In this document: piece by piece, positions 9,152 through 48,814 of the stretch | Layout: each line of letters begins with the position of its first letter | Numbering within the stretch: the first letter of the stretch is position 1 | NCBI RefSeq assembly: GCF_036320965.1 | Contig: NC_092271.1 | Location: 29,428,536-29,492,535 of the forward strand | Direction: 5' to 3' | Source: Panulirus ornatus | Taxonomy: Eukaryota; Arthropoda; Malacostraca; Decapoda; Palinuridae | DNA length: 64,000 bases | Notes under the pieces: model-generated | What the model saw: the letters and a program-made list of their open reading frames with translations, nothing else | Databases searched by the model: none | What the model was told of the DNA's origin: nothing | Position numbers and translations under genes: made by a program

Positions 9152-9267
9152 TTGCCTAGTTCTGCTGCTGAGAGTCTATATAAGGTGGTCCACCACACCA
9201 GGGTCTGTGGCTCCTGAAGCAACCATGACAGGAGAACCTCCTCAGTCACTCCTACTTCACCCTCCAC
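9152..9267 (-). CDS. Dystrophin-family protein, exon g (end of EF-hand region)
   Basis: 116-nt exon on the minus strand. The acceptor is CATATCAG at 9268-9275 and the donor AA|GTATGAG at 9151-9150. It starts in phase 0 and ends with two bases of a codon. It encodes VEGEVGVTEEVLLSWLLQEP followed by QTLVWWTTLYRLSAAELG. In dystrophin and utrophin the matching position reads [20 protein letters not shown] and then AAAET, just before the ZZ zinc finger that binds beta-dystroglycan. The match covers the WL.EPQ..VW...L.R..AAE pattern. Its phase fits the end of exon f at 19241. The donor is weaker than consensus. The ZZ exon is not found downstream in this window. Confidence 0.85.
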
Positions 9268-9424
9268 CTGATATGTACCATATTCATAGGTCACCATCAG
9301 CAGTATTAACACATGAACAATTATTTTAGACATGAGACACTAAACTGAATTTAAGAGGTAAAAATGTCTAAAACTGGGACCAACATTAATAAGCATGATT
9401 AAATATCAAATTGCAATAAATAGT

Positions 9425-10281
9425 GCTGAGTGAGTCGTGCCAGAGATGCATGTGGCATGCATAAGGTGGGAGGTGGGCAGATTAGAAAGAGTAGAGGAAT
9501 GAAGAAATAAACTTGCAAGTGAAGGAGAATTGCAAAGTATTTAGGCAGTACTTTCAGAAAAAGGAATGCAAATGATTAGGTGATGTATAAGAAAAAGGGG
9601 CAGAAGGTCACAAAAAACTGCAGGAGCTGAAAAAGGGGCAAATAAGACTTAGGGTGAACAAGCACCAGTAAACTTTAGGGAGAATATGTTTTGGAAGGAG
9701 GTTAACAGTGTGTGAAAAATAAGAGAACAAATAGGAGTATCGGTGAAGGGGGGGAAATGGGAAGTGGAAACAAGCAATAATGAAGTGAGGAGGATAAGGA
9801 AAGAGTATCTTGAAAGACTTGAATGTGTTTGATGATAGGGTGGCAGATGTAGGGTGTTGGGTGGTATGCAAAGTATGAGTCATGTAATGGTATGATGAAG
9901 AGACATGATGCGGTGAAAGCCTTACATGAGATGAAATGTGGCAAGGAGGCTTGACTGGATAGTATTGCAGTTAGACTTATTAAGAAAAGGGGGTAGGGGT
10001 GGTGGTGTTATTGATTGGCTGGTAGAGGATGTTCAATGGATCCTGATGAGCTACCTAGGATTGTCAGAAGGCGTGTATAGTGCCACTGCATCAAGGCAAG
10101 GGGGATAAAGGCAATTCACACTACAGAGGTATAAGTCTGTTGAGTGGAAATGATAAGTTGTATGGAAAGGTATTGATTGAGAGGATGAATGCATTTATAG
10201 AGCATCTGACTGGGGAGGAGCAATATAGTTTCAGAAGTGGTAGAGATTGTGTGGCTCAGGCGTTTGCTTTAAAGAGTATTT
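9425..10281 (+). mobile_element. Old RTE LINE fragment, endonuclease end to early reverse transcriptase
   Basis: Decayed plus-strand copy. It begins in the CAKDACGMR...IRKGSEWWDEE region, passes through the basic linker and the REQMGTSVKG-like block (near 9725), and reaches MPLHQGKGDKG, HYRGISLLS and GEEQYSFRSGRDC in the open frame at 10080-10298. It is cut at about 10281 and joined to an orphan tail in the opposite orientation. Confidence 0.72.
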
Positions 10282-10396: not shown

Positions 10397-13143
10397 ATTT
10401 TATTTATTTATTTTGCTTTGTCGCTGTCTCCCGTGTTAGTGGGGTAGCGCAAGGAAACAGACGAAAGAATGGCCCAACCCGCCCACATACACACGTATAT
10501 ACATACAGGTCCACACACGCAAATATACATACCTATACATCTCAATGTACACATATATATACACACACAGACATATACACATGTACATAATTCATACTGT
10601 CTGCCTTTATTTGTTCCCATCGCCACCTCGCCACACATAGAATAACAACCCCCTCCCCCCCTCATGTATGCGAGGTAGCGCTAGGAAAAGACACCAAAGG
10701 CCCCATTCATTCACACTCAGTCTCTAGCTGTCATGTAGTAATGCACCGAAACCACAGCTCCCTTTCCACATCCAGGCCCCACACAACTTTCCATGGTTTA
10801 CCCCAGACGCTTCAAATGCCCTGGTTCAATCCATTGACAGCACGTCGACCCCGGTATACCACATCATTCCAATTCACTCTATTCCTTGCACGCCTTTCAC
10901 CCTCCTGCATGTTCAGGCCCCGATCACTCAAAATCTTTTTCACTCCATCTTTCCACCTCCAATTTGGTCTCCCACTTCTCCTCGTTCCCTCCACCTCTGA
11001 CACATATATCCTCTTGGTCAATCTTTCCTCACTCATTCTTTCCAAGTGACCAAACCATTTCAAAACACCCTCTTCTGCTCTCTCAACCACACTCTTTTTA
11101 TTTCCACACATCTCTCTTACCCTTACATTACTTACTCGATCAAACCACCTCACACCACATATTGTCCTCAAACATCTCATTTCCAGCACATCCACCCTCC
11201 TGTGCACAACTCTATCCATAACCCACGCCTCGCAACCACACAACATTGTTGGAACCACTATTCCTTCAAACATACCCATTTTTGCTTTCCGAGATAATGT
11301 TCTCGACTTCCACACATTCTTCAAGGCTCCCAGAATTTTCGCCCCCTTCCCCACCCTATGATTCACTTCCGCTTCCATAGTTCCATCCGCTGCCAAATCC
11401 ACTCCCAGATATCTAAAACACTTTACTTCTTCCAGTTTTTCTCCATTAAAACTTACCTCCCAATTGACTTGACCCTCAACCCTACTGCATCTAATAACCT
11501 TGCTCTTATTCACATTTACTCTTAACTTTCTTCTTTCATACACTTTACCAAACTCAGTCACCAGCTTCTGCAGTTTCTTACATGAATCAGCCACCAGCGC
11601 TGTATCATCAGCGAACAACAACTGACTCACTTCCCATGTTCTCTCATCCACAACAGACTGCATACGTGCCCCTCTTTCTAAAACTCTTGCATTCACCTCC
11701 CTAACAACCCCATCCATAAACAAATTAAACAACCATGGAGACATCACACACCCCTGCCGCAAACCCACATTCACTGAGAACCAATCACTTTCCTCTCTTC
11801 CTACGCGTACACATGCCTTACCTCCTCGATAAAAACCTTTCACTGCTTCTAACAACTTTCCTCCCACACCATATATTCTTAATACCTTCCACAGAGTATC
11901 TCTATCAACTCTATCATATGCCTTCTCCAGATCCATAAATGCTACATACAAATCCATTTGCTTTTCTAAGTATTTCTCACATACATTCTTCAAAGCAAAC
12001 ACCTGATCCACACATCCTCTACCACTTCTGAAACCACACTGCTCTTCCCCAATCTGATGCTCTGTACATGCCTTCACCCTCTCAATCAATACCCTCCCAT
12101 ATAATCTACCAGGAATACTCAACAAACTTATACCTCTGTAATTTGAGCACTCACTCTTATCCCCTTTGCCTTTGTACAATGGCACTATGCAAGCATTCCA
12201 CCAATCCTCAGGCACCTCACCATGAATCATACATACACCAAATAACCTTACCAACCAGTCAACAACACAGTCACCCCCTTTTTTAATAAATTCCACTGCA
12301 TACCATCCAAACCTGCTGCCTTGCCGGCTTTCATCTTCCGCAAAGCTTTTACTACCTCTTCTCTATTTACCAAATCATTTTCCCTAACCCTCTCACTTTG
12401 CACACCACCTCGACCAAAACACCCTATATCTGTCACTCTATCATCAAACACATTCAACAAACCTTCAAAATACTCACTCCATCTCCTTCTCACATCACCA
12501 CTACTAGTTATCACCTCCCCCTTAGCCCCCTTCACTGAAGTTCCCATTTGCTCCCTTGTCTTATGCACTTTATTTACCTCCTTCCACAACATCTTTTTAT
12601 TCTCCCTAAAATTTAATGATACTCTCTCACCCCAACTCTCATTTGCCCTCTTTTTCACCTCGTGCACCTTTCTCTTGACCTCCTGCCTCTTTCTTTTATA
12701 CCTCTCCCACTCATTTGCATTTTTTCCCTGCAAAAATCGTCCAAAAGCCTCTCTCTTCTCTTTCACCAATAATCTAACTTCTTCATCCCACCACTCACTA
12801 CCTTTTCTAATCAACCCACCTCCCACGCTTCTCATGCCACAAGCATCTTTTGCGCAAGCCATCACTGCTTCACTAAATACATCCCATTCCTCCCCCACTC
12901 TCCTTACCTCCTTTGTTCTCACCTTTTTCCATTCTGTACTCAGTCTCTCCTGGTACTTCCTCACACAAGTCTCCTTCCCAAGCTCACTTACTCTCTTCAC
13001 CCCAACATTCTCTCTTCTTTTCTGAAAACCCCCACAAATCTTCACCTTTGCCTCCACAAAATAATGATCAGACATCCCTCCAGTTGCACCTCTCAGCACA
13101 TTAACATCCAAAAGTCTTTCTTTCATGCGTCTATCAATTAACA
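10397..13143 (-). mobile_element. RTE LINE copy (long tail), 5'-truncated, nearly intact polymerase
   Basis: Minus-strand copy running from the C-terminal part of the endonuclease (LIDRRMKERLLDVN at 13140) to the long tail ending in CAAAGCAAAATAAATAAATA at about 10400. A single missing base near 12300 splits the coding region into two open frames, 13144-12248 and 12296-10812. It is truncated at 13143, next to a 120-bp patch of foreign repeat. It faces the plus-strand copy at 13267 head to head. Confidence 0.92.
10812..12296 (-). CDS. RTE-type reverse transcriptase, 494-codon open frame
   Basis: Longest open frame of the window. It encodes the non-LTR reverse transcriptase that copies the element's RNA at a nicked target. 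Visible motifs, in residues of this frame: VPLYKGKGDK (38-47), NYRGISLLS (52-60), the first catalytic aspartate in FMDLEKAYD (120-128), RQGCVMSP (180-187), the catalytic FADD box (228-231), RYLGVD (295-300), CGCEAW (353-358, normally YGCEAW), and the C-terminal GHLERMSEERLTKRI and RSGRPNWRWKDG blocks (416-451). It ends RRAVNGLNQGI, the long-tail C-terminus. The ATG at 12296 is not the natural start. It lies just after a one-base deletion that separates this frame from the upstream endonuclease end and linker (13144-12248). The catalytic residues are intact, but the element lacks its endonuclease. Confidence 0.88.
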   Translation of the reverse strand: MEFIKKGGDCVVDWLVRLFGVCMIHGEVPEDWWNACIVPLYKGKGDKSECSNYRGISLLSIPGRLYGRVLIERVKACTEHQIGEEQCGFRSGRGCVDQVFALKNVCEKYLEKQMDLYVAFMDLEKAYDRVDRDTLWKVLRIYGVGGKLLEAVKGFYRGGKACVRVGREESDWFSVNVGLRQGCVMSPWLFNLFMDGVVREVNARVLERGARMQSVVDERTWEVSQLLFADDTALVADSCKKLQKLVTEFGKVYERRKLRVNVNKSKVIRCSRVEGQVNWEVSFNGEKLEEVKCFRYLGVDLAADGTMEAEVNHRVGKGAKILGALKNVWKSRTLSRKAKMGMFEGIVVPTMLCGCEAWVMDRVVHRRVDVLEMRCLRTICGVRWFDRVSNVRVREMCGNKKSVVERAEEGVLKWFGHLERMSEERLTKRIYVSEVEGTRRSGRPNWRWKDGVKKILSDRGLNMQEGERRARNRVNWNDVVYRGRRAVNGLNQGI

Positions 13144-13266
13144 CTTACTGTGTTTAATTTCCCTGTGGACTCATAGAAATATACATACGTATACATTTCA
13201 ACGTATACATACATATACATACACAGACATCTACATATATACACATGTACATATTCATGTGTATAT
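13144..13266. repeat. Spacer between head-to-head RTE copies
   Basis: The stretch at 13150-13168 (TTTCCCTGTGGACTCATAG) is the reverse complement of the start of an unidentified repeat at 24943-24961. The rest (13171-13262) is a piece of RTE 3' tail in minus orientation, rich in ATACATAC and TATACACATGTACAT. Confidence 0.6.
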
Positions 13267-16230
13267 ATGGGGTGTCTAAATGTGTGTGGATGTAACCAAG
13301 ATGAGAAAAAAGGAGAGATAGGTAGTATGTTTGAGGAAAGGAACCTGGATGTTTTGGCTCTGAGTGAAACGAAGCTAAAGGGTAAAGGGGAAGAGTGGTT
13401 TGGGAATGTCTTGGGAGTAAAGTCAGGGGTTAGTGAGAGGACAAGAGCTAGGGAAGGAGTAGCACTACTCCTGAATCAGGAGTTGTGGGAGTATGTGATA
13501 GAGTGTAAGAAAGTAAATTCTAGATTGATATGGGTAAAACTGAAAGTTGATGGAGAAAGATGGGTGATTATTGGTGCATATGCACCTGGGCATGAGAAGA
13601 AAGATCATGAGAGGCAAGTGTTTTGGGAGTAGCTGAATGAGTGTGTTAGTGGTTTTGATGCAAAAGACCAGGTTATAGTGATGGGTGATTTGAATGCAAA
13701 GGTGAGTAATGTGGCAGTTGAGGGAATAATTGGTATACATGGAGTGTTCAGTGTTGTAAATGGAAATGGTGAAGAGCTTGTAGATTTATGTGCTGAAAAA
13801 GGACTGGTGATTGGGAATACCTGGTTTAAAAAGCGAGATATACATAAGTATACCTATGTAAGTAGGAGAGATGGCCAGAGAGCATTATTGGATTATGTGT
13901 TAATTGATAGACGCATGAAAGAGAGACTTTTGGATGTTAATGTGCTGAGAGGTGCAACTGGAGGGATGTCTGATCATTATCTTGTGGAAGCAAAGGTGAA
14001 GATTTGTGGGGGTTTTCAGAAAAGAAGAGAGAATGTTGGGGTGAAGAGAGTGGTGAGAGTAAGTGAGCTTGGGAAGGAGACTTGTATGAGGAAGTACCAG
14101 GATAGACTGAGTACAGAATGGAAAAAGGTGAGAACAATGGAAGTAAGGGGAGTGGGGGAGGAATGGGATGTATTTAGGGAAGCAGTGATGGCTTGCGCAA
14201 AAGATGCTTGTGGCATGAGAAGCATGGGAGGTGGGTTGATTAGAAAAGGTAGTGAGTGGTGGGATGAAGAAGTAAGATTATTAGTGAAAGAGAAGAGAGA
14301 GGCATTTGAACGATTTTTGCAGGGAAAAGATGCAAATGAGTGGGAGAGGTATAAAAGAAAGAGGCAGGAGGTCAAGAGAAAGGTGCAAGAGGTGAAAAAG
14401 AGGGCAAATGAGAGTTGGGGCGAGAGAGTATCATTAAATTTCAGGGAGAATAAATAGATGTTTTGGAAGGAGGTAAATAAAGTGCGTAAGATAAGGGAGC
14501 AAATGGGAACTTCAGTGAAGGGGGCAAATGGGAAGGTGATAACAAGTAGTGGTGATGTGAGAAGGAGATGGAGTGAGTATTTTGAAGGTTTGTTGAATGT
14601 GTTTGATGATAGAGTGGCAGATGTGGGGTGTCTTTGTCGAGGTGGTGTGCAAAGTGAGAGGGTTAGGGAAAATGATTTGGTAAATAGAGAAGAGGTAGTG
14701 AAAGCTTTACGGAAGATGAAAGCCGGCAAAGCAGCAGGTTTGGATGGCATTGCAGTGGAATTTATCAAAAAAGGGGGTGACTGTATTGTTGACTGGTTGG
14801 TAAGGTTATTTAATGTGTATATGATTCATGGTGAGGTGCCTGAGGATTGGCGGAATGCTTGCATAGTGCCATTGTACAAAGGCAAAGGGGATAAGAGTGA
14901 GTGCTCAAATTACAGAGGTATAAGTTTGTTGAGTATTCCTGGTAAATTATATGGGAGGGTATTGATTGAGAGGGTGAAGGCATGTACAGAGCATCAGATT
15001 GGGGAAGAGCAGTGTGGTTTCAGAAGTGGTAGAGGATGTGTGGATCAGGTGTTTGCTTTGAAGAATATATGCGAGAAATACTTAGAAAAACAAATGGATT
15101 TGTATGTAGCATTTATGGATCTGGAGAAGGCATATGATAGAGTTGATAGAGACGCTCTGTGGAAGGTATTAAGAATATATGGTGTGGAAGGAAAGTTGTT
15201 AGAAGCAGTGAAAAGTTTTTATCGAGGATGTAAGGCATGTGTATGTGTAGGAAGAGAGGAAAGTGATTGGTTCTCAGTGAATGTAGGTTTGCGGCAGGGG
15301 TGTGTGATGTCTCCATGGTTGTTTAATTTGTTTATGGATGGGGTTGTTAGGGAGGTGAATGCAAGAGTTTTGGAAAGAGGGGCAAGTATGAAGTCTGTTG
15401 TGGATGAGAGAACTTGGGAAGTGAGCCAGTTGTTGTTCGCTGATGATACAGCGCTGGTGGCTGATTCATGTGAGAAACTGCAGAAGCTGGTGACTGAGTT
15501 TGGTAAAGTGTGTGAAAGAAGAAAGTTAAGAGTAAATGTGAATAAGAGCAAGGTTATTAGTAGGGTTGAGGGTCATGTCAATTGGGAGGTAAGTTTGAAT
15601 AGAGAAAAGCTGGAGGAAGTGAAGTGTTTTAGATATCTGGGAGTGGATCTGGCAGCGGATGGAACCATGGAAGCGGAAGTGAATCAAGGGTGGGGGAGGG
15701 GGCGAAAATTCTGGGAGCCTTGAAGAATGTTTGGAAGTCGAGAACATTATCTCGGAAAGCAAAAATGGCTATGTTTGAAGGAATAGTGGTTCCAACAATG
15801 TTGTATGGTTGCGAGGCGTGGGCTATGGATAGAGTTGTGCGCAGGAGGGTGGATGTGCTGGAAATGAGATGTTTGAGGACAATATGTGGTGTGAGGTGGT
15901 TTGATCGAGTAAGTAATGTAAGGGTGAGAGAGATGTGTGGAAATAAAGAGTGTGGTTGAGAGAGCAGAAGAGGGTGTTTTGAAATGGTTTGGTCACATGG
16001 ATAGAATGAGTGGGGAAAGATTGACCAAGAGGATATATGTGTCAGAGGTGGAGGGAACAAGGAGAAGTGGGAGACCAAATTGGAGGTGGAAAGATGGAGT
16101 GAAAAAGATTTTGAGTGATCGGGGCCTGAAAATGCAGGAAGGTGAAAGGCGTGCAAGGAATAGAGTGAATTGGAACGATGTGGTATACCGGGGTCGACGT
16201 GCTGTCAATGGATTGAACCAGGGCATGTGA
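13267..16230 (+). pseudogene. RTE endonuclease-reverse transcriptase polyprotein, four disabling changes
   Basis: Encodes an apurinic-type endonuclease (LNVCGCNQD, LALSETKLKG, WVIIGAYAP, VIVMGDLNAKV, LLDYVLIDRR, GMSDHYLVEAKVKI) that would nick target DNA. A basic linker follows, then an RT with IVPLYKGKGDK, NYRGISLLS, FMDLEKAYDRV, LRQGCVMSP, LLFADDTALVAD and YLGVDL, and the C-terminal GHMDRMSGERL domain. The frame is broken by an in-frame TAG at 13630 (CAG in sisters), a TAG at 14455 (AAG in sisters), a one-base loss near 15688 and a two-base loss near 15948. These restore the original frame for the last 97 codons (15937-16230). The remainder is open. The length of about 990 codons is typical of RTE-type elements with a single ORF. 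Confidence 0.9.
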
Positions 16231-19240: not shown

Positions 19241-19355
19241 CTCTTTGAAGCAGCTTTCAACTGCAGCTGACACCAAAGATAAGCCAAATGATGGTTGCTC
19301 GGAGAGCAGCTCTGGGATACGAGCCAAATCACGAAGCAAGGCTGCTAATCTCCTT
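19241..19355 (-). CDS. Dystrophin-family protein, exon f (second EF-hand-like region)
   Basis: 115-nt exon on the minus strand. The acceptor is TTGTTTTGTAG (19366-19356) and the donor GAG|GTAAGA (19240). It begins with the last base of a split codon and ends in phase 0. It encodes RRLAALLRDLARIPELLSEQ, then PSFGLSLVSAAVESCFKE. Dystrophin and utrophin have RRLGLLLHDSIQIPRQLGE, then ASFGGSNIEPSVRSCF, at this point. The match is clear but much weaker than expected for an orthologous dystrophin, which suggests a divergent paralogue. It joins in frame to exon e (22726) and exon g (9267). Confidence 0.9.
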
Positions 19356-22725: not shown

Positions 22726-22854
22726 CTGGTACAACAGTTGTTGTGGTCTGCTACCTGAGAGAATAGATACCGATATTTCTCCTGCAGTCGCCCTCCACAC
22801 AAAACCACGAGCAGCACCTTACATCCCAGAACTTGTACCATACCAATGCGACCT
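22726..22854 (-). CDS. Dystrophin-family protein, exon e (EF-hand core, EKYRYLF)
   Basis: 129-nt exon on the minus strand. The acceptor is AAATTGTCAG (22864-22855) and the donor CCAG|GTGTAG (22725). It starts with one base and ends with two bases of split codons. It encodes [20 protein letters not shown], then [20 protein letters not shown] and a final CTR. Dystrophin and utrophin read [20 protein letters not shown], then EDKYRYLFKQVA and STGFCDQRR here. KYRYLF and QVA are the strongest anchors of the whole gene. No long open frame marks this exon, because stops flank it closely. Spliced ends regenerate VYDLGRIG with exon d and CTRRRLAALL with exon f. Confidence 0.9.
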
Positions 22855-23957: not shown

Positions 23958-24159
23958 AGGTCATAAACATTGAGTAAAAGATTAACTGTAAGCTGGGTAG
24001 CAGGAACTACTTGAACATGGCGTTGTTTGTATGTTGTATATAATATCTTTTGAATCACTTGCTCCACCTGCTTCACTTCAATTAAATCATTGTTTTCCCC
24101 AGCTCGAAGACCAGCATTATCAAAAGCTGAGGCTACACAATGAAGAGATACCTCATGAA
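23958..24159 (-). CDS. Dystrophin-family protein, exon d (first EF-hand-like region)
   Basis: 202-nt exon on the minus strand. The acceptor is TTTATTTACAG (24170-24160) and the donor CT|GTAAGTT (23957). It starts with two bases of a codon completed by exon c and ends with two bases completed by exon e. It encodes HEVSLHCVASAFDNAGLRAG, then ENNDLIEVKQVEQVIQKILY, then TTYKQRHVQVVPATQLTVNL and LLNVYD. The family pattern is LDLLSLSAACDALDQHNL, then the II..L..IY.RLE...... V.V....D..LNWLLNVYD helix pair. LLNVYD is exact. It forms part of the EF-hand-like module that packs against the WW domain in dystrophin. Confidence 0.9.
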
Positions 24160-25176: not shown

Positions 25177-25202
25177 CATATATATATATATAAATATATA
25201 TA
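25139..25202. repeat. (GT)n and (AT)n microsatellite
   Basis: GT repeats (25139-25172) followed by a TA-rich run up to the truncated 5' end of an RTE copy. Confidence 0.95.
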
Positions 25203-26510
25203 TGTTTAATTTGTTTATGGATGGGGTTGTTAGGGAGGTGAATGCAAGAGTTTTGGAAAGAGGGGCAAGTATGAAGTCTGTTGGGGATGAGAGAGCTTGG
25301 GAAGTGAGTCAGTTGTTGTTCGCTGATGATACAGCGCTGGTGGCTGATTCATGTGAGAAACTGCAGAAGCTGGTGACTGAGTTTGGTAAAGTGTGTGAAA
25401 GAAGAAAGTTAAGAGTAAATGTGAATAAGAGCAAGGTTATTAGGTACAGTAGGGTTGAGGGTCAAGTCAACTGGGAGGTAAGTTTGAATGGAGAAAAACT
25501 GGAGGAAGTAAAGTGTTTTATATATCTGAGAGTGGATCTGGCAGCGGATGGAACCATGGAAGCGGAAGTGAATCATAGGGTGGGGGAGGGGGCGAAAATC
25601 CTGGGAGCCTTGAAGAGTGTGTGGAAGTCGAGAACATTATCTCGGAAAGCAAAAATGGCTATGTTTGAAGGAATAGTGGTTCCAACAATGTTGTATGGTT
25701 GCGAGGCGTGGGCTATGGATAGAGTTGTGCGCAGGAGGGTGGATGTGCTGGAAATGAGATGTTTGAGGACAATATGTGGTGTGAGGTGGTTTGATCAAGT
25801 AAGTAATGTAAGGGTGAGAGAGATGTGTGGAAATAAAAAGAGTGTGGTTGAGAGAGCAGAAGAGGGTGTTTTGAAATGGTTTGGTCACATGGAGAGAATG
25901 AATGGGGAAAGATTGACCAAGAGGATATATGTGTCAGAGGTGGAGGGAATGAGGAGGAGTGGGAGACCAAATTGGAGGTGGAAAGATGGAGTGAAAAAGA
26001 TTTTGAGTGATCGGGGCCTGCAAATGCAGGAGGGTGAAAGGCGTGCAAGGAATAGAGTGAATTGGAATGATGTGGTATACCGGGGTCGACATGCTGTCAA
26101 TGGACTGAACCAGGGAATGTGTGGGGCCTGGATGTGGAAAGGGAGCTGTGGTTTCGGTGCATTATTACATGACAGCTAGAGACTGAGTGTGAACGAATGG
26201 GGCCTTTGGTGTTTTTCCTAGCGCTACCTCGCACACATGAGGGGGGAGGGGGTTGTTATTCCATGTGTGGCGAGGTGGCGATGGGAACAAATAAAGGAAG
26301 ACAGTATGAATTATGTACATGTGTATATATGTATATGTCTGTGTGTGTATATATATGTGTACATTGAGATGTATAGATATGTATATTGTGCGTGTGTGGA
26401 CATGTATGTATATACATTTGTATGTGGGCGGGTTGGGCCATTCTTTCGTCTGTTTCCTTGCACTACCTCACTAACGCGGGAGACAGCGATAAAGCAAAAT
26501 AAATAAATAA
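25203..26510 (+). mobile_element. RTE LINE copy (long tail), 5'-truncated, young
   Basis: Begins inside the RT at FNLFMDGVVREVNARV and is open without a break through LLFADDTALVAD, YLRVDL, YGCEAWAMDR, GHMERMNGERL and AVNGLNQGM. A loss of about 40 bases near 26115 removes the normal stop, so the frame runs on to 26179 in tail sequence (CGAWMWKGSCGFGALLHDS). The long tail follows to the hairpin and (AAAT)n at 26500. Confidence 0.9.
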
Positions 26511-26514
26511 ATAA

Positions 26515-26580
<66 letters not shown>
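26502..26580. repeat. (AAAT)n then (TA)n microsatellite
   Basis: The A-rich tail of the plus-strand RTE copy passes into about 30 TA units and then meets the T-rich tail of an opposite copy. The result is a tail-to-tail junction. Confidence 0.95.
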
Positions 26581-26589
<9 letters not shown>

Positions 26590-27385: not shown

Positions 27386-27404
27386 ATATATATATATATG
27401 TATA

Positions 27405-27436: not shown

Positions 27437-27443
<7 letters not shown>

Positions 27444-27738: not shown

Positions 27739-27739
27739 A

Positions 27740-33172: not shown

Positions 33173-33309
33173 ATTTAAGTCGTGTCTGAAGACGATGTAA
33201 CTTGCACGCAGTACGATATGCAGCATATTTCACTGAATTAACAGTCTGAATTTCTTCTAAGATACGAACATACTCTGGATGGTCCCACTGGGTAACTCCA
33301 TGCCTATGA
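33173..33309 (-). CDS. Dystrophin-family protein, exon c (end of WW domain, start of EF-hand region)
   Basis: 137-nt exon on the minus strand. The acceptor is TTACTTTTCTAG (33321-33310) and the donor AAAT|GTGAGTT (33172). It begins with one base that completes the Asn codon of exon b and ends with one base that begins the Phe codon completed by exon d. It encodes HRHGVTQWDHPEYVRILEEI, then QTVNSVKYAAYRTACKLHRL and QTRLK. The family reads HETQTTCWDHPKM, then [20 protein letters not shown] and LQKAL. The second WW-domain tryptophan and the AYRTA.KL.RLQ helix are both present. The WW domain and EF-hands together bind the PPxY tail of beta-dystroglycan in dystrophin. Confidence 0.93.
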
Positions 33310-35629: not shown

Positions 35630-36125
35630 AATTGATGGGCATGCACAGGATAGAATCTTGGATATGACTATGCTGAAATGGGTAGCTGGAAGGATGTCTG
35701 ATAATTTCCTGGTGAAATCCTAGGGGAAGATTTGCCGAGACTTTCAGAGTACACAAAATGATGTGGGTGAGACGAAGATGGTGAAAGTGACTTTGGAAAA
35801 GAGGCTTGTGTGGAGACATACCAGGAGAGGTTGAGTGTTGAGCAGTAAAAGGTGAGTGTAAACGAAGCTTGAAGGATTGGTGAGGAATAGAAGTGGATGG
35901 CATTGGAAGGTGTAAGAAGGGCATGTATGAAAGGGGAAAAAGTGGTAGGCGACAAAGTCAGTTGTTAATGAAAAAGAAAAGTGAGGGGTATGGATGATAC
36001 TTACAGGGAAGGAGTGTGAGTGATTGAGAGAAATACTTGAAAAAGTGGCAAAAGGTCAAGAGGGAGGTGCAGGGGCACAGGGGGAAAATGAAAGCTGGGC
36101 AAAGATAAGGAAACTTCAGTGTAAG
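35630..36125 (+). mobile_element. Old RTE fragment, left part, interrupted by a younger RTE
   Basis: Decayed plus-strand endonuclease end and linker (GGTAGCTGGAAGGATGTCTGAT parallels the GATGGMSD coding). It continues to about 36125 (AACTTCAGTG) and resumes at 37461 (GCTGAAGGGGGC) after the younger insertion. Confidence 0.65.
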
Positions 36126-37422
36126 AAAAGCAAATGGATTTGTATGTAGCATTTATGGATCTGGAGAAGGCATATGATAGAGTCGATAGAGATGCTCTGT
36201 GGAAGGTATTAAGAATATATGGTGTGGGAGGAAAGTTGTTAGAAGCAGTGAAAAGTTTTTATCGAGGATGTAAGGCATGTGTATGTGTAGGAAGAGAGGA
36301 AAGTGATTGGTTCTCAGTGAATGTAGGTTTGCGGCAGGGGTGTGTGATGTCTCCATGGTTGTTTAATTTGTTTATGGATAGGGTTGTTAGGGAGGTGAAT
36401 GCAAGAGTTTTGGAAAGAGGGGCAAGTATGAAGTCTGTTGGGGATGAGAGAGCTTGGGAAGTGAGTCAGTTGTTGTTCACTGATGATACAGCACTGGTGG
36501 CTGATTCATGTGAGAAACTGCAGAAGCTGGTGACTGAGTTTGGTAAAGTGTGTGAAAGAAGAAAGTTAAGAGTAAATGTGAATAAGAGCAAGGTTATTAG
36601 GTACAGTAGGGTTGAGGGTCAAGTCAATTGGGAGGTAAGTTTGAATGGAGAAAAACTGGAGGAAGTAAAGTGTTTTAGATATCTGGGAGTGGATCTGGCA
36701 GCGGATGGAACCATGGAAGCGGAAGTGGATCATAGGGTGGGGGAGGGGGCGAAAATTCTGGGAGCCTTGAAAAATGTGTGGAAGTCGAGAACATTATATC
36801 GGAAAGCAAAAATGGGTATGTTTGAAGGAACAGTGGTTCCAACAATGTTGTATGGTTGCGAGGCATGGGCTATGGATAGAGTTGAGCGCAGGAGGATGGA
36901 TGTGCTGGAAATGAGATGTTTGAGGACAATGTGTGGTGTGAGATGGTTTGATCGAGTAAGTAACGTAAGGGTAAGAGATGTGTGGAAATAAAAAGAGCGT
37001 GGTTGAGAGAGCAGAAGAGGGTGTTTTGAAGTGGTTTGGGCACATGGAGAGAATGAGTGAGGAAAGATTGACCAAGAGGATATATGTGTCGGAGGTGGAG
37101 GGAACAAGGAGAAGTGGGAGACCAAATTGGAGGTGGAAAGATGGAGTGAAAAAGATTTTGTGTGATCGGGGCCTGAACATGCAGGAGGGTGAAAGGAGGG
37201 CAAGGAATAGAGTGAATTGGATCGATGTGGTATACCGGGGTTGACGTGCTGTCAGTGGATTGAATCAGGGCATGTGAAGCGTCTGGGGTAAACCATGGAA
37301 AGCTGTGTAGGTATGTATATTTGCGTGTGTGGACGTATGTATATACATGTGAATGGGGGTGGGTTGGGCCATTTCTTTCGTCTGTTTCCTTGCGCTACCT
37401 CGCAAACGCGGGAGACAGCGGG

Positions 37423-37423
<1 letters not shown>
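36126..37423 (+). mobile_element. RTE LINE copy (short tail), young, inserted in an older copy
   Basis: The open frame 36134-36991 begins KQMDLYVAFMDLEKAYDRVD and runs through LRQGCVMSP, YLGVDL and YGCEAWAMDRVE. The catalytic box reads LLFTDDTALVAD, with FADD changed to FTDD. A two-base loss near 36975 shifts to frame 36978-37244 (GHMERMSEERL), ending at the short-tail stop. The short tail leads into the A-run at 37423-37460. Confidence 0.9.

Positions 37424-37460
<37 letters not shown>
37423..37460. repeat. Poly(A) tract of the inserted RTE copy
   Basis: A run of 37 As, unusually pure for this family, whose tails normally end in AAT or TA repeats. Confidence 0.9.
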
Positions 37461-37462
<2 letters not shown>

Positions 37463-37895
37463 ACATATGAGATGATCGCTGAAGGGGGCTACTGTGGGTG
37501 TGGTAACAAGCAGAGATGAGGTGAAGAGGTGATGGCTTAAGTACTTTGGAGGACTCCTGAATGTGTTTGATGACATGGTAGCAGATCTGGGGTGCTTGGG
37601 TATGAGAGATATGTAAAATGAAAGAGCCATAGCAAGTGATTTCCTTAAATAAGCAACTATGTAGAAAGCTTTGCATGCATCAGATGAAATGAGGAAAGGC
37701 CTCTGGAGTGGATGGTACTGCAGCTGAATTTCTTAAAAAAACATGACTGTGCTGTTGACTGAACTGCCTGAAGACCGGTAGAACGCTTGTATAGTGCCAT
37801 CATGTATATAAAAAGCAAGGGGTACAAAGACGAGTGTTTGAATTAAAGAGGGATAAGCTTTTGAGTGTACCTGGTAAGCTGTATGCAAGGGTAGT
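37461..37895 (+). mobile_element. Old RTE fragment, right part
   Basis: Continuation of 35630-36125. It has the linker (GTAACAAGCAGAGATGAGGT), GGACTCCTGAATGTGTTTGATGA (the GLLNVFDD coding) and decayed RT starts (GATAAGCTTTTGAGTGTACC), and fades at 37895. Confidence 0.65.
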
Positions 37896-37904
37896 TAAAA
37901 AAAA

Positions 37905-37905
37905 T

Positions 37906-37936
<31 letters not shown>

Positions 37937-38038
37937 GGAAAGGATATCCAGTCCCCCGCTCCCTTCCCTTTTAGTCGCCTTCTACGACACGCAACGAAAA
38001 CGTGGAAAGTATTCTTTCTCCCCTATCCACAGGGATAA
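37905..38038 (-). mobile_element. SINE-like element, head only, with A-run
   Basis: The A-run is at 37909-37936. Then come GGAAAGGATATCCAGTCCCC, TAGTCGCCTTCTACGACACG and the head TATTCTTTCTCCCCTATCCA. The half with the 3' hairpin is missing. Confidence 0.78.
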
Positions 38039-38069
38039 TATACATACATATATATATATTTATATTCAT

Positions 38070-38620
38070 TTATTATACTTTGTCGCTGTGTCCCGCGTTA
38101 GAGAGGTAGCGCAAGGAAACAGAGGAAAGAATGGCCCACCCCATCCACATAAACATATATCCTCTTTGTCAACCTCTCCTCACTCATTCTCTTCATATGT
38201 CCAAACCATTTCAACACACACTCTTCTGCTCTCTCAACCACACTCTTAATTACCACATTTCTCTCTTACTCTCATTTCTTACTCAATCTGACTGCCTCAC
38301 ACCACAAATTGTTCTCAAGCATTTCATTTTTAACCCATCCACCCTCCTCTGTACAACCATATCTATAGCCCATGCCCTGCAACCATATGATATTGTTGGA
38401 ACTACTATTCCTTCAAACATACCCATTTTTGCTCCCCAAGATAACTTTCTCTCCTTCCACTTATTCTTCATTGCTCCCAGAACCTTTGCCCCCTCCCCAA
38501 CCCTGTGGTTACTTCCATTTCCATGGTTCATTTTGCTGCTATGTTCACTCCCAGATATCTAAAATACATCACTTCCCCTAATTTTTCTCCATTCAAACTT
38601 ACATGCCAACTAACATGTAA
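38070..38620 (-). mobile_element. RTE LINE fragment with internally shortened tail
   Basis: Minus strand. The end hairpin GTCGCTGTGTCCCGCGTTAG runs only to ACCCCATCCACATAAACATA, then passes directly into coding that corresponds to KRIYVSEVE, so the C-terminus and most of the tail are deleted. The older polymerase end continues (38531-38283, YGCRAWAID) to a YLG-like region near 38560. Confidence 0.75.
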
Positions 38621-38626
38621 ATATAT

Positions 38627-38628
38627 AT

Positions 38629-38666
<38 letters not shown>
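38627..38666. repeat. (TA)n microsatellite
   Basis: TA-rich run separating the minus-strand fragment from the truncated 5' end of the next plus-strand copy. Confidence 0.93.
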
Positions 38667-38667
<1 letters not shown>

Positions 38668-38668
<1 letters not shown>

Positions 38669-40950
38669 TGAGTACAGAATGGAAAAAGGTGAGAACAATG
38701 GAAGTAAGGGGAGTGGGGGAGGAATGGGATGTATTTAGGGAATCAGTGATGGATTGCGCAAAAGATGCTTGTGGCATGAGAAGAGTGGGAGGTGGGTTGA
38801 TTAGAAAGGGTAGTGAGTGGTGGGATGAAGAAGTAAGAGTATTAGTGAAAGAGAAGAGAGAGGCATTTGGATGATTTTTGCAGGGAAAAAATGCAATTGA
38901 GTGGGAGATGTATAAAAGAAAGAGACAGGAGGTCAAGAGAAAGGTGCAAGAGGTGAAAAAAAGGGCAAATGAGAGTTGGGGTGAGAGAGTATCATTAAAT
39001 TTTAGGGAGAATAAAAAGATGTTCTGGAAGGAGGTAAATAAAGTGCGTAAGACAAGGGAGCAAATGGGAACTTCAGTGAAGGGCGCAAATGGGGAGGTGA
39101 TAACAAGTAGTGGTGATGTGAGAAGGAGATGGAGTGAGTATTTTGAAGGTTTGTTGAATGTGTTTGATGATAGAGTGGCAGATATAGGGTGTTTTGGTCG
39201 AGGTGGTGTGCAAAGTGAGAGGGTTAGGGAAAATGATTTGGTAAACAGAGAAGAGGTAGTGAAAGCTTTGCGGAAGATGAAAGCCGGCAAGGCAACAGGT
39301 TTGGATGGTATTGCAGTGGAATTTATTAAAAAAGGGGGTGACTGTATTGTTGACTGGTTGGTAAGGTTATTTAATGTATGTATGACTCATGGTGAGGTGC
39401 CTGAGGATTGGCGGAATGCGTGCATAGTGCCATTGTACAAAGGCAAAGGGGATAAGAGTGAGTGCTCAAATTACAGAGGTATAAGTTTGTTGAGTATTCC
39501 TGGTAAATTATATGGGAGGGTATTGATTGAAAGGGTGAAGGCATGTACAGAGCACCAGATTGGGGAAGAGCAGTGTGGTTTCAGAGGTGGTAGAGGATGT
39601 GTGGATCAGGTGTTTGCTTTGAAGAATGTATGTGAGAAATACTTAGAAAAGCAAATGGATTTGTATGTAGCATTTATGGATCTGGAGAAGGCATATGATA
39701 GAGTTGATAGAGATGCTCTGTGGAAGGTATTAAGAATATATGGTGTGGGAGGAAAGTTGTTAGAAGCAGTGAAAAGTTTTTATCGAGGATGTAAGGCATG
39801 CGTACGTGTAGGAAGAGAGGAAAGTGATTGGTTCTCAGTGAATGTAGGTTTGTGGCAGGGGTGTGTGATGTCTCCATGGTTGTTTAATTTGTTTATGGAT
39901 GGGGTTGTTAGGGAGGTAAATGCAAGAGTTTTGGAAAGAGGGGCAAGTATGAAGTCTGTTGGGGATGAGAGAGCTTGGGAAGTGAGTCAGTTGTAGTTCG
40001 CTGATGATAGAGCGCTGGTGGCTGATTCATGTGAGAAACTGCAGAAGCTGGTGACTGAGTTTGGAAAAGTGTGTGGAAGAAGAAAGTTAAGAGTAAATGT
40101 GAATAAGAGCAAGGTTATTAGGTACAGTAGGGTTGAGGGTCAAGTCAATTGGGAGGTGAGTTTGAATGGAGAAAAACTGGAGGAAGTGAAGTGTTTTAGA
40201 TATCTGGGAGTGGATCTGGCAGCGGATGGAACCATGGAAGCGGAAGTGGATCATAGGGTGGGGGAGGGGGCGAAAATCCTGGGGGCCTTGAAGAATGTGT
40301 GGAAGTCGAGAACATTATCTCGGAAAGCAAAAATAGGTATGTTTGAATGAATAGTGGTTCCAACAATGTTGTATGGTTGCGAGGCGTGGGCTATGGATAG
40401 AGTTGTGCGCAGGAGGATGGATGTGCTGGAAATGAGATGTTTGAGGACAATGTGTGGTGTGAGGTGGTTTGATCGAGTGAGTAACATAAGGGTAAGAGAG
40501 ATGTGTGGAAATAAAAAGAGCGTGGTTGAGAGAGCAGAAGAGGGTGTTTTGAAGTGGTTTGGGCACATGGAGAGGATGAGTGAGGAAAGATTGACCAAGA
40601 GGATATATGTGTCGGAGGTGGAGGGAACGAGAAGTGGGAGGCCAAATTGGAGGTGGAAAGATGGAGTGAAAAAGATTTTGTGTGATCGGGGCCTGAACAT
40701 GCAGGAGGGTGAAAGGAGGGCAAGGAATAGAGTGAATTGGATCGATGTGGTATACCGGGGTTGACGTGCTGTCAGTGGGTTGAATAGGGCATGTGAAGCG
40801 TCTGGGGTAAACCATGGAAAGCTGTGTAGGTATGTATATTTGCGTGTGTGGACGTATGTATATACATGTGTATGGGGGTGGGTTGGGCTATTTCTTTCGT
40901 CTGTTTCCTTGCGCCACCTCGCAAACGCAGGAGACAGCGACAAAGCAAAA
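38668..40950 (+). mobile_element. RTE LINE copy (short tail), 5'-truncated within the endonuclease
   Basis: Young copy from LSTEWKKVRT at the end of the endonuclease to the full short tail and hairpin at 40945. Coding is described in the pseudogene entry. Confidence 0.93.
38689..40764 (+). pseudogene. RTE reverse transcriptase, one frame with three nonsense codons and no frameshift
   Basis: A single plus-strand frame spans about 692 codons and is broken only by TGA at 38872 (CGA in sisters), TAG at 39994 (TTG in sisters, just before FADD) and TGA at 40348 (GGA in sisters). It contains SEWWDEEVR, the basic linker, DVRRRWSEYFEGLLN, VPLYKGKGDK, NYRGISLLS, FMDLEKAYDRV, LWQGCVMSP (normally LRQG), FADDRALVAD (normally FADDTALVAD), YLGVDL, YGCEAWAMDR and GHMERMSEERL. 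It ends NWIDVVYRG at the short-tail stop. One codon is lost in the GTRSGRP block. The polymerase is dead, but recently so. Confidence 0.9.
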
Positions 40951-43490: not shown

Positions 43491-43500
43491 GTTTCTGGAG

Positions 43501-43654
43501 CTATCTGGCCAAAACAGGAAATGGCAAACATTTGTGAAGGAAAGAAAATTTCTCTTTTCACTTCATTACCCTTATTGCTATCTGGCCAAAACAGGAAATG
43601 GCAAACATTTGTGAAGGAAAGAAAATTTCTCTTTTCACTTCATTACCCTTATTG
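43501..43654. repeat. Perfect 77-bp tandem duplication
   Basis: CTATCTGGCCAAAACAGG begins at 43501 and again at 43578. The two 77-base units are identical, so the event is recent or an assembly artefact. Confidence 0.92.
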
Positions 43655-43922
43655 CTTTCAATAATCAAAAATGATGATACCATTTCATAAACTATAAAAG
43701 TACATTTGTCATGTGCAAACAAATTCAGATAATAACAATTCAATGTTCACAGTTAGAAAAGATAATACAATCAAAATTATGGATACAGACCTTTGTAGCA
43801 ATCACAGCTGCACAGCTGCAACACCCATCAGGTAAACTTATGCAATGCACATACTGTCCATCATTCCATGTGCTGTATTTCTCAGGGTAACATAAAACAA
43901 GACATAATATTACAGTACTCAC
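43655..43922. other. Host intron next to exon b
   Basis: An open minus-strand frame (43922-43740) abuts the exon b donor, but it is read-through of the intron. Exons b and c join perfectly without it. Confidence 0.55.
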
Positions 43923-43983
43923 TTAACATAGTATGGAACCCCAGATGAGGTACGAGCCATTGCCCAGGCTTCCAACACATGAC
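43923..43983 (-). CDS. Dystrophin-family protein, exon b (first half of WW domain)
   Basis: 61-nt exon on the minus strand, too short to show as an open frame. The acceptor is ATTTTACAG (43992-43984) and the donor GTTAA|GTGAGTA (43922). It starts with two bases of a codon begun in exon a (giving Gly) and ends with two bases completed in exon c (giving Asn). It encodes HVLEAWAMARTSSGVPYYV. In dystrophin the matching stretch is VQGPWERAISPNKVPYYIN: first WW tryptophan, loop, and the aromatic VPYY strand that forms the proline-binding surface. Fused to exon c it gives VPYYVNHRHGVTQWDHPEY, a complete WW domain. Confidence 0.9.
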
Positions 43984-44884: not shown

Positions 44885-47195
44885 ATATTTGGACGATTTT
44901 TGCCGGGAAGTAGTGCGAATGACTGGGAGATGTATAAAAGAAAGAAGCAGGAGGTCAAGAGAAAGGTGCAAGAGGTGAAAAAGAGGGCAAATGAGAGCTG
45001 GGGTAAGAGAGTATCATTAAATTTTAGGGAGAATAAAATGTTCTGGAAGGAAGGTAAATAAAGTGCGTAAGACAAGAGAACAAATGGGAACATCAGTGAA
45101 GGGGGATAATGGGGAGGTAATAACAAGTAGTGGTGAAGTGAGAAGGAGATGGAGTGAGTATTTTGAAGGTTTGTTGAATGTGTTTGATGATAGAGTGGCA
45201 GATATAGGGTGTTTTGGTCGAGGTGGTGTGCAAAGTGAGAGGGTTAGGGAAAATGGTTTGGTAAACAGAGAAGAGGTAGTGAAAGCAGTGCGGACGATGA
45301 AAGCCGGAGGGTTTGGATGGTACTGCAGTGGAATTTATTATAAAAAGGGAGTGACTGTGTTGTTGACTGGTTGGTAAGGATATTCAATGTATGTATGGTT
45401 TATGGTAAAGTGCTTGAGGATTGGAGGAATGCATGCACAGTGCCATTGTACAAAGGCAAAAGGGATAAAGGTGAGTGTTCAAATTACAGAGGTATAAGTT
45501 TGTTGAGTATTCCTGGGAAATTGTATGGGAGGGTATTGATTGAGAGGGTAAAGGCATGTACAGAGCATCAGATTGGGAAAGAGCAGTGTGGTTTCAGAAG
45601 TGATAGAGGATGTGTGGATCAGGTGTTTGCTTTGAAGAATGTATGTGAGAAATACTTAGAAAAACAAATGGATTTGTATGTAGCATTTGTGAATCTGGAG
45701 AAGGCGTATGATAGAGTTGACAGAGATGCTCTTTGGAAGGTATTAAGAATATATGGTGTGGGAGGTAAGTTGCTAGAAGCAGTGAAAAGGTTTTATCAAG
45801 GATGTAAGGCATGTGTATGAGTAGGAAGAGAGGAAAGTGATTGGTTCTCAGTGAATGTCGGTTTGCGGCAGGGTTGCATGGTCTCCATGGTTGTTTAATC
45901 TGTTTATGGATGGGGTTGTTTGGGAGGTGAATGCAAGAGTTTTGGAGAGAGGGGCAAGTATGCAGTCTGTTGTGGATGAGAGGACTTGGGAAGTGAGTCA
46001 GTTGTTGTTTGCTGATGATACAGCGATGGTGGCTGATTCGGGTGAGAAACTGCAGAAGTTGGTGACTTAGTTTAGTAAAGTGTGTGAATGAAGAAAGCTG
46101 AGCGTAAATGTGAATAAGAACAAGGTTATTATGTTCAGTAGGGTTGGGGGACAAGTTAATTGGGAGAAAAGTTTGAATGGAGAAAAACTGGAGGATGTGA
46201 AGTGTTTTAGATATCTGGGTATGAATTTAGCAGTGGATGGAACCATGGAAGCATAAATAAGTCACAGGGTGGGGGAAGGTGCGAAGGTCCTGGGAGCATT
46301 GGAGAATGAGTTGAAGGTGAGAATTTTATGTCGGAGAACAAAAATGGGTATGACTGAAGGAATAGTGGTTCCAACAATGTTATATGGTTGCAAGGCATGG
46401 GTTATTGAATGAGTTGTGCAGGGGAGGGTGGATGTGTTGGAAATGAGATGTTTGAGGACAATGTGGTGTGAGGTGGTTTAAGTAATGAAAGGGTAAGAGA
46501 GATATGTGGTAATAAAAAGAGTGTGGTTGAGAAAGCAGAAGAGGGTGCATTGAAATGGTTTGGTCACGTGGAGAGAATGAGTGAGGAAACATTGACAAAG
46601 AGGATATATGTGTCACAGGTGGAGGGAACAAGGAGAAGTGGGAAACCAAATTGGAGGTGGAAGGATGGAGTGAAAAAGATTTTGAGTGGTTGGGGCCTGA
46701 ACATAGAGAGGGGTGAGAGGTGTGCAAGGAATAGAGTGAACTGGAACGATGTGGTATACCAGGGTCGATGTGCTGTCAATGGATTGAACCAGAGCATGTG
46801 AAGCGTCTGGGGCAAACCATAGAAAGTTCTGCGGGGCCTGGATGTGGAAAGAGAGCTGTGGTTTTGATGCATTACACATAACAGCTAGAGACTGAGTGCG
46901 AACAAATGTGGCCTATGTTGTCTTTTCCTAGCGCTACCTCACACGCGCACACAGGGGGAGGGGGTGCCAATTCATGTGTGGTGGGGTGGCAATGGGAATG
47001 GATGAAGGCAGCAAGTATGAATATGTACATGTGTACATATGTGTGTCTGTGTATGTATATGTATACGCTGAAATGTATAGGTATGCATATGTGCGTGTAG
47101 GAGTTTATACATATGCATGTGTATGTCGGTTGGTTGGGCCATTCTTTCATCTGTTTCCTTGCACTACCTTGATACTGCGGGAGATAGCGACTAAG
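44885..47195 (+). mobile_element. RTE LINE copy (long tail), 5'-truncated, middle-aged
   Basis: Plus strand from the linker (FGRFLPGSSANDWEMYKRKK region) to the long tail and hairpin at 47185. Open pieces: 45063-45377 (DVRRR-like EVRRRWSEYFEGLLN), 45371-45820 (VPLYKGKRDKG, NYRGISLLS, FVNLEKAYDRV in which the catalytic Asp is Asn), 45855-46070 (LLFADDTAMVADSG) and 46523-46801 (GHVERMSEETL, AVNGLNQSM). Many frameshifts are present. Confidence 0.88.
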
Positions 47196-48687
47196 TATAA
47201 TAAATATAATGAACATATATGGTGTGATATAAATTTGAATTCCCATCATTTACCATTCCTGACTCGTAAAACTTGCAATAGTCAGTTTTCCAGATCAAAT
47301 AGAAAATCTATGAAATTGTGCCATAAAATCTAATTAACCATTTTGTCAAATACTGTTTTTGAGTTACAATGCTAACAAGGATGTACACACACACACACAC
47401 ACAAACAGATGTAGGGGTAATAACAAATTCTTGCATAACTTATGTAGCAGCAAGACATAAAAATATAAAGAAAACATGGTTGGAAACTTGCATGGTAAAT
47501 CATGTAATAGTTGTACTAATGATAACAAAAATGCCCGAGATTCATGAAGTATGCTACTTCAAAAATATGTTTTCCTTATAACAAAGGCTAGTACATCTTC
47601 ATCTAATTCTTTCCATGAAATTTCCATAACTAGCAATACCTTTATGAAACTGTAAGATCTTAAGCAGGTGAATACCATATAAACATTTATCTTGCTGTTT
47701 TTTCCAGGCAAAACTTAGGTCTCACTAGGTCAAATGAAATATGGGGAAAAGGCACATGTTCAAATGAAATATGGGGAGAAGGAATGTGTAGTCTGGTATC
47801 TTACTTTTCATCAGACTGAAAGTCAAACTTCCTAAATGAAGATAAGTAGCATCTAACAAAAAAATCATGAATAACCCAATAAAATAGATTACGAAGGAAT
47901 AAAGACTGCAGCATACTTGAAGATATACCAGTATTTAAGACAATAAGATAAAACTAAGTATATGCCTGCTGAACATTCAAACATTTAAAATGTTGCTACA
48001 ACATGAATTCCAGGATAACCAGAGTGATATTTCTCGAGAACACTCTTATTCAGCAAACACGGTATTTTGAATTCAATTACACTGTTAAGGTCCCTCATGC
48101 TTATTCATCTATAAACCTTATTAATAAATTAAGGTTATCAGACCAACCAATAACTGTCCTTGAACTCTGCTCATAATAACAATAGCATAATTCCAACTAA
48201 AACATTTAACTGGCATCATTTCTCATTTGTTAATTCATCAGTTTACCCTCATCAAAACTAGCTCTGGATATTGGGTGACTTTGTCTGCAATACTTGTCCA
48301 GTATTCAGAAAGTACAATAACAGTTGCAGAGCATGATTGGGACCATTACACTATGTTTCATTATGAAAGTAAATTACATAATAGTAATGGGGATTATGTA
48401 CACCTAGAAAAATGTGGTGAATAATGAAAAAGGTGAAAAACTTGTAAAAACCAAATGAACCTATGAAACTTGTAACCTCCCCTAATAAATGAGATGTATG
48501 CTATACTACATGGTAACAGAAATGTACCAACATTAAACTGGTCTGCTGCTGAGAATCACATGGAATAGCTAACTTCAGAGTATGTGAGGATAACCTACAT
48601 CGTCGTCTTCACCATACCCGAAACCACATTCAAGAGTTTCTATATTATCACTAAGTTAACATTATCGATATTACCCATACAACTTAC
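47196..48687. other. Host intron, no gene recognised
   Basis: AT-rich. (CA)n at 47384-47402 and a near-repeat of GTTCAAATGAAATATGGGG around 47730-47780. The plus-strand open frame 48227-48424 has no recognisable motif. Confidence 0.5.
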
Positions 48688-48814
48688 CCTCCATAGTCTC
48701 CACCATGATGAGAGCTTTGAATGAAACCCTTATACAGTATAATATATTTTTTCCACAATACAGAACTTTCTGCTTGACCACTTTAACACGAGTTTGAAAT
48801 GAGCGACGGCAGGC
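48688..48814 (-). CDS. Dystrophin-family protein, exon a (region before the WW domain)
   Basis: 127-nt exon on the minus strand. The acceptor is GGGTTGGCAG (48824-48815) and the donor GAGG|GTAAGTT (48687), a strong consensus donor. It starts in phase 0 and ends with the first base of the Gly codon completed by exon b. It encodes ACRRSFQTRVKVVKQKVLYC, GKNILYCIRVSFKALIMVET and ME. I do not recognise this stretch directly. In dystrophin this position is the end of the last spectrin repeat, and the sequence is basic and amphipathic enough to be helical. The call rests on the matching phase and strong splice sites. The preceding exon (needing phase 0) was not found. Confidence 0.62.

What the first reader, a model, noticed from the sequence alone, without database searches (positions are those of the whole stretch)
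9152..48814. A dystrophin-family gene hidden in about 40 kb of retrotransposons
Seven minus-strand exons of 61-202 nt have proper splice sites and join in phase (0-1, 1-2, 2-1, 1-2, 2-2, 2-0, 0-2) for 887 nt. Together they encode a WW domain (AW...VPYYVNHRHGVTQWDHPE) and the EF-hand block ([43 protein letters not shown]). The order along the minus strand equals the order in dystrophin. Two of the exons (43923-43983 and 22726-22854) are invisible as open frames and were found only by motif and phase.
Basis: partly seen in the sequence, partly recalled or inferred. Interest (0 to 1): 0.88.

Follow-up and report, generated by a model that had tools for sequence, protein, structure and literature searches.

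The report
Short second dystrophin gene, spiny lobster
The window holds the first part of a real gene of the ornate spiny lobster that makes a short relative of the muscle protein dystrophin, without dystrophin's long actin-binding arm; the gene is already listed in public databases, but it seems to belong to an old animal gene branch whose place next to dystrophin and dystrotelin has not been worked out.

Summary
Seven minus-strand exons join in frame and, after two corrections, encode exactly residues 1-258 of NCBI's Panulirus ornatus 'dystrophin-like isoform X3' (P0014). Correction 1: translation starts at the ATG at 48706, so most of exon 1 is 5' untranslated. ZZ and tail exons lie below the window; the coding gene spans about 83 kb of contig C48. 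About 63% of the named span is sequence repeated within the window; no exon lies in it.

It is not this animal's dystrophin. The same genome has a canonical dystrophin on C46 and dystrobrevin-like exons on C20. The window gene is a separate, short paralogue starting right at the WW domain, with relatives from sponges to arthropods. Five of its six internal splice sites match human DMD exon ends in codon and phase. It may be the invertebrate counterpart of vertebrate dystrotelin with the WW domain kept: favoured by some trees, not proven. The gene is known; the WW-first branch is the interesting part.

The parts
48688..48706 (-).
   Evidence: P0014 begins here; start shared with other crustacean rows
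43923..43983 (-). Exon 2, 61 nt, phase 1-2: first half of the WW domain; same borders as human DMD exon 62
33173..33309 (-). Exon 3, 137 nt, phase 2-1: second half of WW and start of EF-hand_2; outer borders those of human DMD exons 63+64
23958..24159 (-). Exon 4, 202 nt, phase 1-2: EF-hand_2; same borders as human DMD exon 65
22726..22854 (-). Exon 5, 129 nt, phase 2-2: end of EF-hand_2 and start of EF-hand_3; its 3' border differs from DMD
19241..19355 (-). Exon 6, 115 nt, phase 2-0: EF-hand_3; 3' border equals DMD exon 67/68
9156..9267 (-). Exon 7, 112 nt, phase 0-1, GC donor (AG|GCAAGT); corrected from 9152
   Evidence: junction to exon 8 at C48:29417879 gives the P0014 sequence

Best explanation
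The exons are the 5' part of an intact gene of the ornate spiny lobster Panulirus ornatus for a short dystrophin-superfamily protein of about 635-700 aa. From the N-terminus it has a WW domain at the very start, EF-hand_2 and EF-hand_3 blocks, a ZZ zinc finger, two predicted helices where dystrophin has its coiled coils, and two more helices at the C-terminus. No actin-binding domain or spectrin rod was found. It is a separate paralogue, not an isoform of the animal's dystrophin. Mechanism (inferred): the WW-EF-ZZ unit grips a PPxY-type cytoplasmic tail, most simply that of dystroglycan, and the coiled coils bring in dystrobrevin-type partners; it would act as a Dp71-like membrane-side scaffold that cannot itself reach actin through a rod. 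Shown: gene structure, identity with the annotated protein, domains, predicted fold of the head, separate canonical dystrophin locus, wide animal spread of the WW-first group. Inferred: ligands, partners and biological role.
Against: No RNA evidence was examined here. Binding to dystroglycan or dystrobrevin is inferred from fold and residues only. Much of the tail after about residue 340 is low-confidence in the model (168 of 635 residues under pLDDT 50). NCBI's two Panulirus models differ at the start and in the tail (P0014 against P0017), so the exact protein is not settled. A spectrin-family search of the whole genome did not complete and a CH-domain search was not made, so absence of rod and actin-binding exons upstream on C48 rests and on the conserved start.
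Confidence: 0.85

Rival explanations
1. It is the invertebrate orthologue of vertebrate dystrotelin (and perhaps of fly DAH), which has kept a WW domain that vertebrate dystrotelin lost. This adds to the best explanation and does not exclude it.
For: The EF-hand_2 family finds 5 matches in 3 loci of the genome: dystrophin C46, dystrobrevin-like C20 and this one (counts are lower bounds), so it may fill the third slot. With the single dystrobrevin row left out, 5 mammalian dystrotelins group with the 26 bilaterian rows, 98/84. 8 of 8 dystrotelins score 28-45 bits higher on WW-first than on dystrophin profiles. 7 of 8 share the T of LPT.HR, where 13 of 15 dystrophin rows have V.
Against: With the dystrobrevin row present, dystrotelin leaves the group and joins that long branch. 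AU tests do not reject dystrotelin with dystrophin (p 0.197 without and 0.233 with the dystrobrevin row). The dystrobrevin control also scores 21 bits higher on the WW-first profile. Of only 4 diagnostic columns dystrotelin is WW-first-like in 2, dystrophin-like in 1, neither in 1. In 4 simpler trees dystrotelin sits with the 26 rows at support 66 and 50, with all WW-first groups at 0, and with a single row at 86. Only mammalian dystrotelins were held.
Confidence: 0.5
2. It is a short isoform (Dp71-like internal promoter product) of the lobster's ordinary dystrophin gene.
For: Architecture resembles Dp71, and exon 1 joins exon 2 at the codon and phase of DMD exon 61/62.
Against: A canonical dystrophin with its own WW, EF and ZZ exons and rod-region matches lies on another contig, C46; its WW, EF and ZZ stretches are only 31-46% identical to the window gene's protein (four matches).
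Confidence: 0.03
3. It is a decaying pseudogene fragment held open by chance.
For: Large introns full of repeats.
Against: 258 codons open, splice sites usable, downstream exons present on the same strand. Identity to P0014 in the alignment: 69-76% for 8 of 8 named decapod rows, 72, 72 and 65% for three unnamed rows, 61% for the mantis shrimp.
Confidence: 0.03

Closest known systems
Panulirus ornatus dystrophin-like isoform X3 (P0014) and decapod relatives in NCBI (Penaeus, Macrobrachium, Homarus, Procambarus and others)
   Same: P0014 is the same gene; relatives have the same start, domains and mostly a length near 700 aa
   Different: Source names call them dystrophin, dystrophin-like, DRP2-like or hypothetical; the names do not tell that this is a separate branch
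Human dystrophin (DMD), C-terminal part and its Dp71 isoform
   Same: WW-EF-EF-ZZ head, same fold, five of six internal intron positions
   Different: No actin-binding domain or rod found; separate gene. The Dp71 start codon lies in DMD intron 62 (c.9225-5813, PMC2808359, passage), inside the WW-coding stretch, so Dp71 should have only part of the WW domain (my inference); this protein has all of it
Vertebrate dystrotelin (DYTN)
   Same: Short, no rod, third member beside dystrophin and dystrobrevin; possible sister in part of the trees
   Different: Dystrotelin has no WW domain (PMC1790709, section 18); placement unresolved here
Drosophila DAH (discontinuous actin hexagon)
   Same: Short insect superfamily member, proposed by Jin et al. 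as possible dystrotelin orthologue (PMC1790709, section 18)
   Different: No DAH sequence was compared here

Membership tests
Dystrophin/dystrobrevin/dystrotelin superfamily | EF-hand_2 and EF-hand_3 blocks followed by ZZ | tested here: met
   Pfam hits on the window product; ZZ in P0014/P0017 and on C48 below the window
Canonical dystrophin | WW domain before the EF-hands | tested here: met
   Pfam WW 4.2e-9; intron inside WW at the codon and phase of DMD exon 62/63
Canonical dystrophin | Spectrin rod before the WW domain | tested here: not met
   Protein starts 12 residues before the first WW tryptophan, a start shared with other crustacean rows; rod-bearing query P0106 finds rod matches on C46, none on C48 at E up to 1. 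The spectrin-family search did not complete
Canonical dystrophin | N-terminal actin-binding (CH) domain | not tested
   Absent from P0014 and P0017 (Pfam) and from the window product, but the genome upstream was not searched for CH exons
Canonical dystrophin | Groups with dystrophin, utrophin, DRP2 in trees | tested here: not met
   15 dystrophin-class rows form a 100/100 group without it; it lies in the 26-row bilaterian group, 94/88
Dystrotelin | No WW domain (as described for vertebrates) | tested here: not met
   WW present; definition from PMC1790709 section 18
Dystrotelin | Common descent with vertebrate dystrotelin | tested here: inconclusive
   98/84 without dystrobrevin, lost with it; AU tests undecided
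Dystrobrevin | No WW domain; groups with dystrobrevin | tested here: not met
   WW present; dystrobrevin-like exons lie elsewhere, on C20; the one dystrobrevin row stands apart in the tree
DAH | Sequence kinship with fly DAH | not tested
Dystroglycan-binding dystrophin head | Binding of the PPxY tail of beta-dystroglycan | not testable with these tools
   Fold and WW residues kept; binding needs an experiment

The most novel reading that the evidence does not exclude
WW-first short proteins are the ancestral form of the dystrophin side of the superfamily. Invertebrates from corals to lobsters still carry one as a third gene; vertebrate dystrotelin is its descendant that lost the WW domain; and long dystrophin arose when an actin-binding domain and rod were joined to a WW-first gene through the intron at the 5' edge of the WW domain, whose codon and phase this gene shares with human DMD exon 61/62. 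This would replace the view that the WW domain came to dystrophin together with the rod.
Probability: 0.35. Interest if true: 0.7.

Novelty: new variant of a known kind. Interest (0 to 1): 0.45.

Why it matters
Jin et al. 2007 (PMC1790709, passages and section 18) left the branching of dystrophin, dystrobrevin and dystrotelin unresolved, with dystrotelin and dystrobrevin both lacking the WW domain, and credited the WW domain to the large N-terminal extension that the dystrophin branch acquired. A 2023 review (PMC10293626, section 5) says that invertebrates do not contain a dystrophin paralogue. A WW-first, rod-less gene beside dystrophin, with relatives in sponges, corals, molluscs, annelids, a brachiopod, amphioxus, a hemichordate, a starfish and arthropods, sits badly with the second statement and gives the first question a testable answer. 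It also offers a natural dystrophin-type head without the rod, a useful contrast for asking what the head does by itself.

Tried and rejected
Exon 1 as fully coding: rejected, the shared start lies 108 nt into it. Exon 7 ending at 9152: rejected, gives a stop in exon 8. ZZ exon inside the window below exon 7: not found. Short isoform of the ordinary dystrophin: rejected by the C46 locus. Rfam scan of the window: 0 matches at gathering score. tRNA scan with bacterial settings: 0. Pfam on seven further open frames: 0 families. In the structure comparison the only hits at E 0.001 or less were five dystrophin and dystrobrevin chains; the tail helices had no listed match of their own. A first tree held 69 rows; before the second I dropped 10 rows (long, partly filled, badly cut, mislabelled or near-duplicate: P0124, P0122, P0095, P0120, P0115, P0053, P0111, P0121, P0092, P0094) and thinned 5 more (P0215, P0191, P0137, P0025, P0024). 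Three of the dropped rows (P0094, P0121, P0092) I had labelled WW-first by mistake; they fell among the dystrophins. Of the 26 bilaterian rows kept under the WW-first label, 23 begin with a WW-like stretch; P0031 is a partial record cut inside it, P0090 shows half of it and P0110 none.

I found no paper in the held library that describes the WW-first branch: searches (25 of 970 papers listed; 3 papers; 0; 0; 1; 1; 2). Open-licence PMC only; of these I looked into two (PMC1790709, PMC10293626), not in full.
Full report
What is in the window. Seven exons on the minus strand were re-read with their flanks. Pfam finds WW, EF-hand_2 and EF-hand_3, each above cut-off. The nearest solved structure by sequence is the dystrophin WW-EF fragment 1eg3.

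Whose gene it is. The nearest protein of the first search is a 248-aa hypothetical protein of the shrimp Halocaridina, 76% identical. An alignment search then returned P0014, 'dystrophin-like isoform X3' of Panulirus ornatus, whose first 258 residues are identical to the window product. Its contig length, 30,773,430, is that of contig C48 of the window's own genome. I conclude that the window is ornate spiny lobster, C48:29428536-29492535, and that the gene is already annotated, though under a name that does not tell its place in the family.

Corrections. Translation starts at 48706 (MVETMEG). Exon 7 ends at 9156 at a GC donor in the context AG|GCAAGT. Exon 8 begins at C48:29417879; the GC join gives ...AAELVCHDVKCGVC as in P0014, while the GT join at 9152 gives four residues and a stop. 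The rest of the gene lies below the window: matches for residues 245 to 686 of P0017 on the same strand, down to C48:29393801, so the coding gene spans about 83.4 kb.

Repeats. Of the 39,663 bases from 9152 to 48814, 24,864 are repeated elsewhere in the window at 75% identity or more over at least 150 bases; 19,359 match, as protein, three reading frames taken from the window's retroelements; 0 of 7 exons overlap a repeat. Two of those three frames carry Pfam RVT_1, the third no family.

Not the animal's dystrophin. The EF-hand_2 family finds five matches in three places of the genome, a lower bound. C46 has WW, EF, ZZ and tail exons of the canonical type ([27 protein letters not shown]), 46-73% identical to a Nymphon dystrophin, with rod-region matches upstream. 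C20 has exons that I read as dystrobrevin. C48 is the window gene. A query with a rod finds no rod match on C48 at E up to 1; a whole-genome spectrin search did not complete and CH exons were not searched.

An old branch. Among 124 proteins of the first two searches (the second lists the best 120 of 168), I sorted by eye those that begin at the WW domain. In 45 of them the first WW tryptophan has 3-55 residues before it, median 12. By the names that the sources give they come from decapods, a mantis shrimp, insects, Limulus, a sea spider, molluscs, annelids, Lingula, amphioxus, a hemichordate, a starfish, corals and a sponge; two more sponge rows begin the same way. The search accepted only lengths of 0.55-1.75 times the query, so full-length dystrophins could not appear, and a few rows may be partial models. 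In a tree of 54 rows the 26 bilaterian members form one group (94/88) and 15 canonical dystrophin-class rows another (100/100); cnidarian and sponge WW-first rows lie between them. 23 of the 26 show a WW-like start; one is a cut record, one has half and one none. Inside the group the deuterostome, mollusc and arthropod rows each fall together. Timema bartmani and Nymphon striatum each have one of both kinds, 33% and 34% identical, which shows separate genes. Whether cnidarian rows belong with the bilaterian ones is open: cnidarian rows with dystrophin are not rejected (p 0.197), dystrophin directly with the bilaterian group is weakly rejected (p 0.045).

Intron positions. Aligned to human dystrophin, five of the six internal junctions of the window gene fall in the same codon and phase as DMD exon ends 61, 62, 64, 65 and 67 (c.9163, 9224, 9361, 9563, 9807); the junction of exons 5 and 6 does not. 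The first of these is extrapolated four residues beyond the aligned part, without gaps. DMD coordinates were written from memory; passages confirm c.9164-, c.9224+1, c.9225-, c.9563+1 and c.9808- (PMC8534830, PMC2808359, PMC3607557), while c.9361 was not seen for DMD in print. The WW domain, split by the same intron, was thus most likely in place before the two genes parted.

Link to dystrotelin. Jin et al. (PMC1790709; abstract, passages and section 18 read) describe dystrotelin as a third branch without a WW domain and could not resolve the order of branching. Here 5 mammalian dystrotelins join the 26-row group at 98/84 when the one dystrobrevin row is left out, but join that long row when it is present. 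AU tests do not decide: dystrotelin with dystrophin p 0.197 and 0.233, dystrotelin with the 26 rows p 0.395 when dystrobrevin is in. Four simpler trees give weak or shifting support. A profile comparison favours WW-first by 28-45 bits in 8 of 8 dystrotelins, but the dystrobrevin control also favours it by 21. Four diagnostic columns split 2, 1, 1. I call this suggestive.

Verdict. What these calls add is that it belongs to an old WW-first branch beside dystrophin, which two papers on the family's evolution do not mention in the parts that I read (PMC1790709; PMC10293626, section 5 and passages).

Noticed in passing
window 4679-7077, 10812-16230, 25190-30626, 36125-40791, 61304-63842 and others (30 stretches): Many copies, on both strands, of retroelement-like frames; two of three tested carry Pfam RVT_1. 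TA- and CA-rich tandem arrays are frequent in the window. Lineage not determined.
   Followed up: partly
window 43500-43656: Perfect 77-base tandem duplication in the intron 267 bases below exon 2.
   Followed up: no
window 60915-61277: 185-base tandem duplication, 99% matching.
   Followed up: no
window about 48862: An in-frame upstream ATG is open into exon 1; if used, the protein would be longer at the N-terminus, which the other crustacean rows do not show.
   Followed up: partly
P0014 versus P0017 (Panulirus): NCBI's two models differ: P0017 starts at M15 of P0014 and carries 65 more residues in the tail, encoded by the exon at C48:29402690-29402902; alternative first and tail exons are possible.
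   Followed up: partly
P0090 (Timema), P0110 (Anabrus): Insect members of the branch with half or no WW stretch, a possible parallel to the absence of WW in dystrotelin.
   Followed up: no
P0018, P0027, P0110, P0090, P0068: A short tail motif ESTP, followed in four of these five by SPI some 10-25 residues on, recurs in arthropod members (seen by eye); no function known to me.
   Followed up: no
G000 C46:36806809-37045459: Canonical dystrophin of the same lobster, matches over at least 238 kb, with retroelement-like frames of the same look near its exons.
   Followed up: partly
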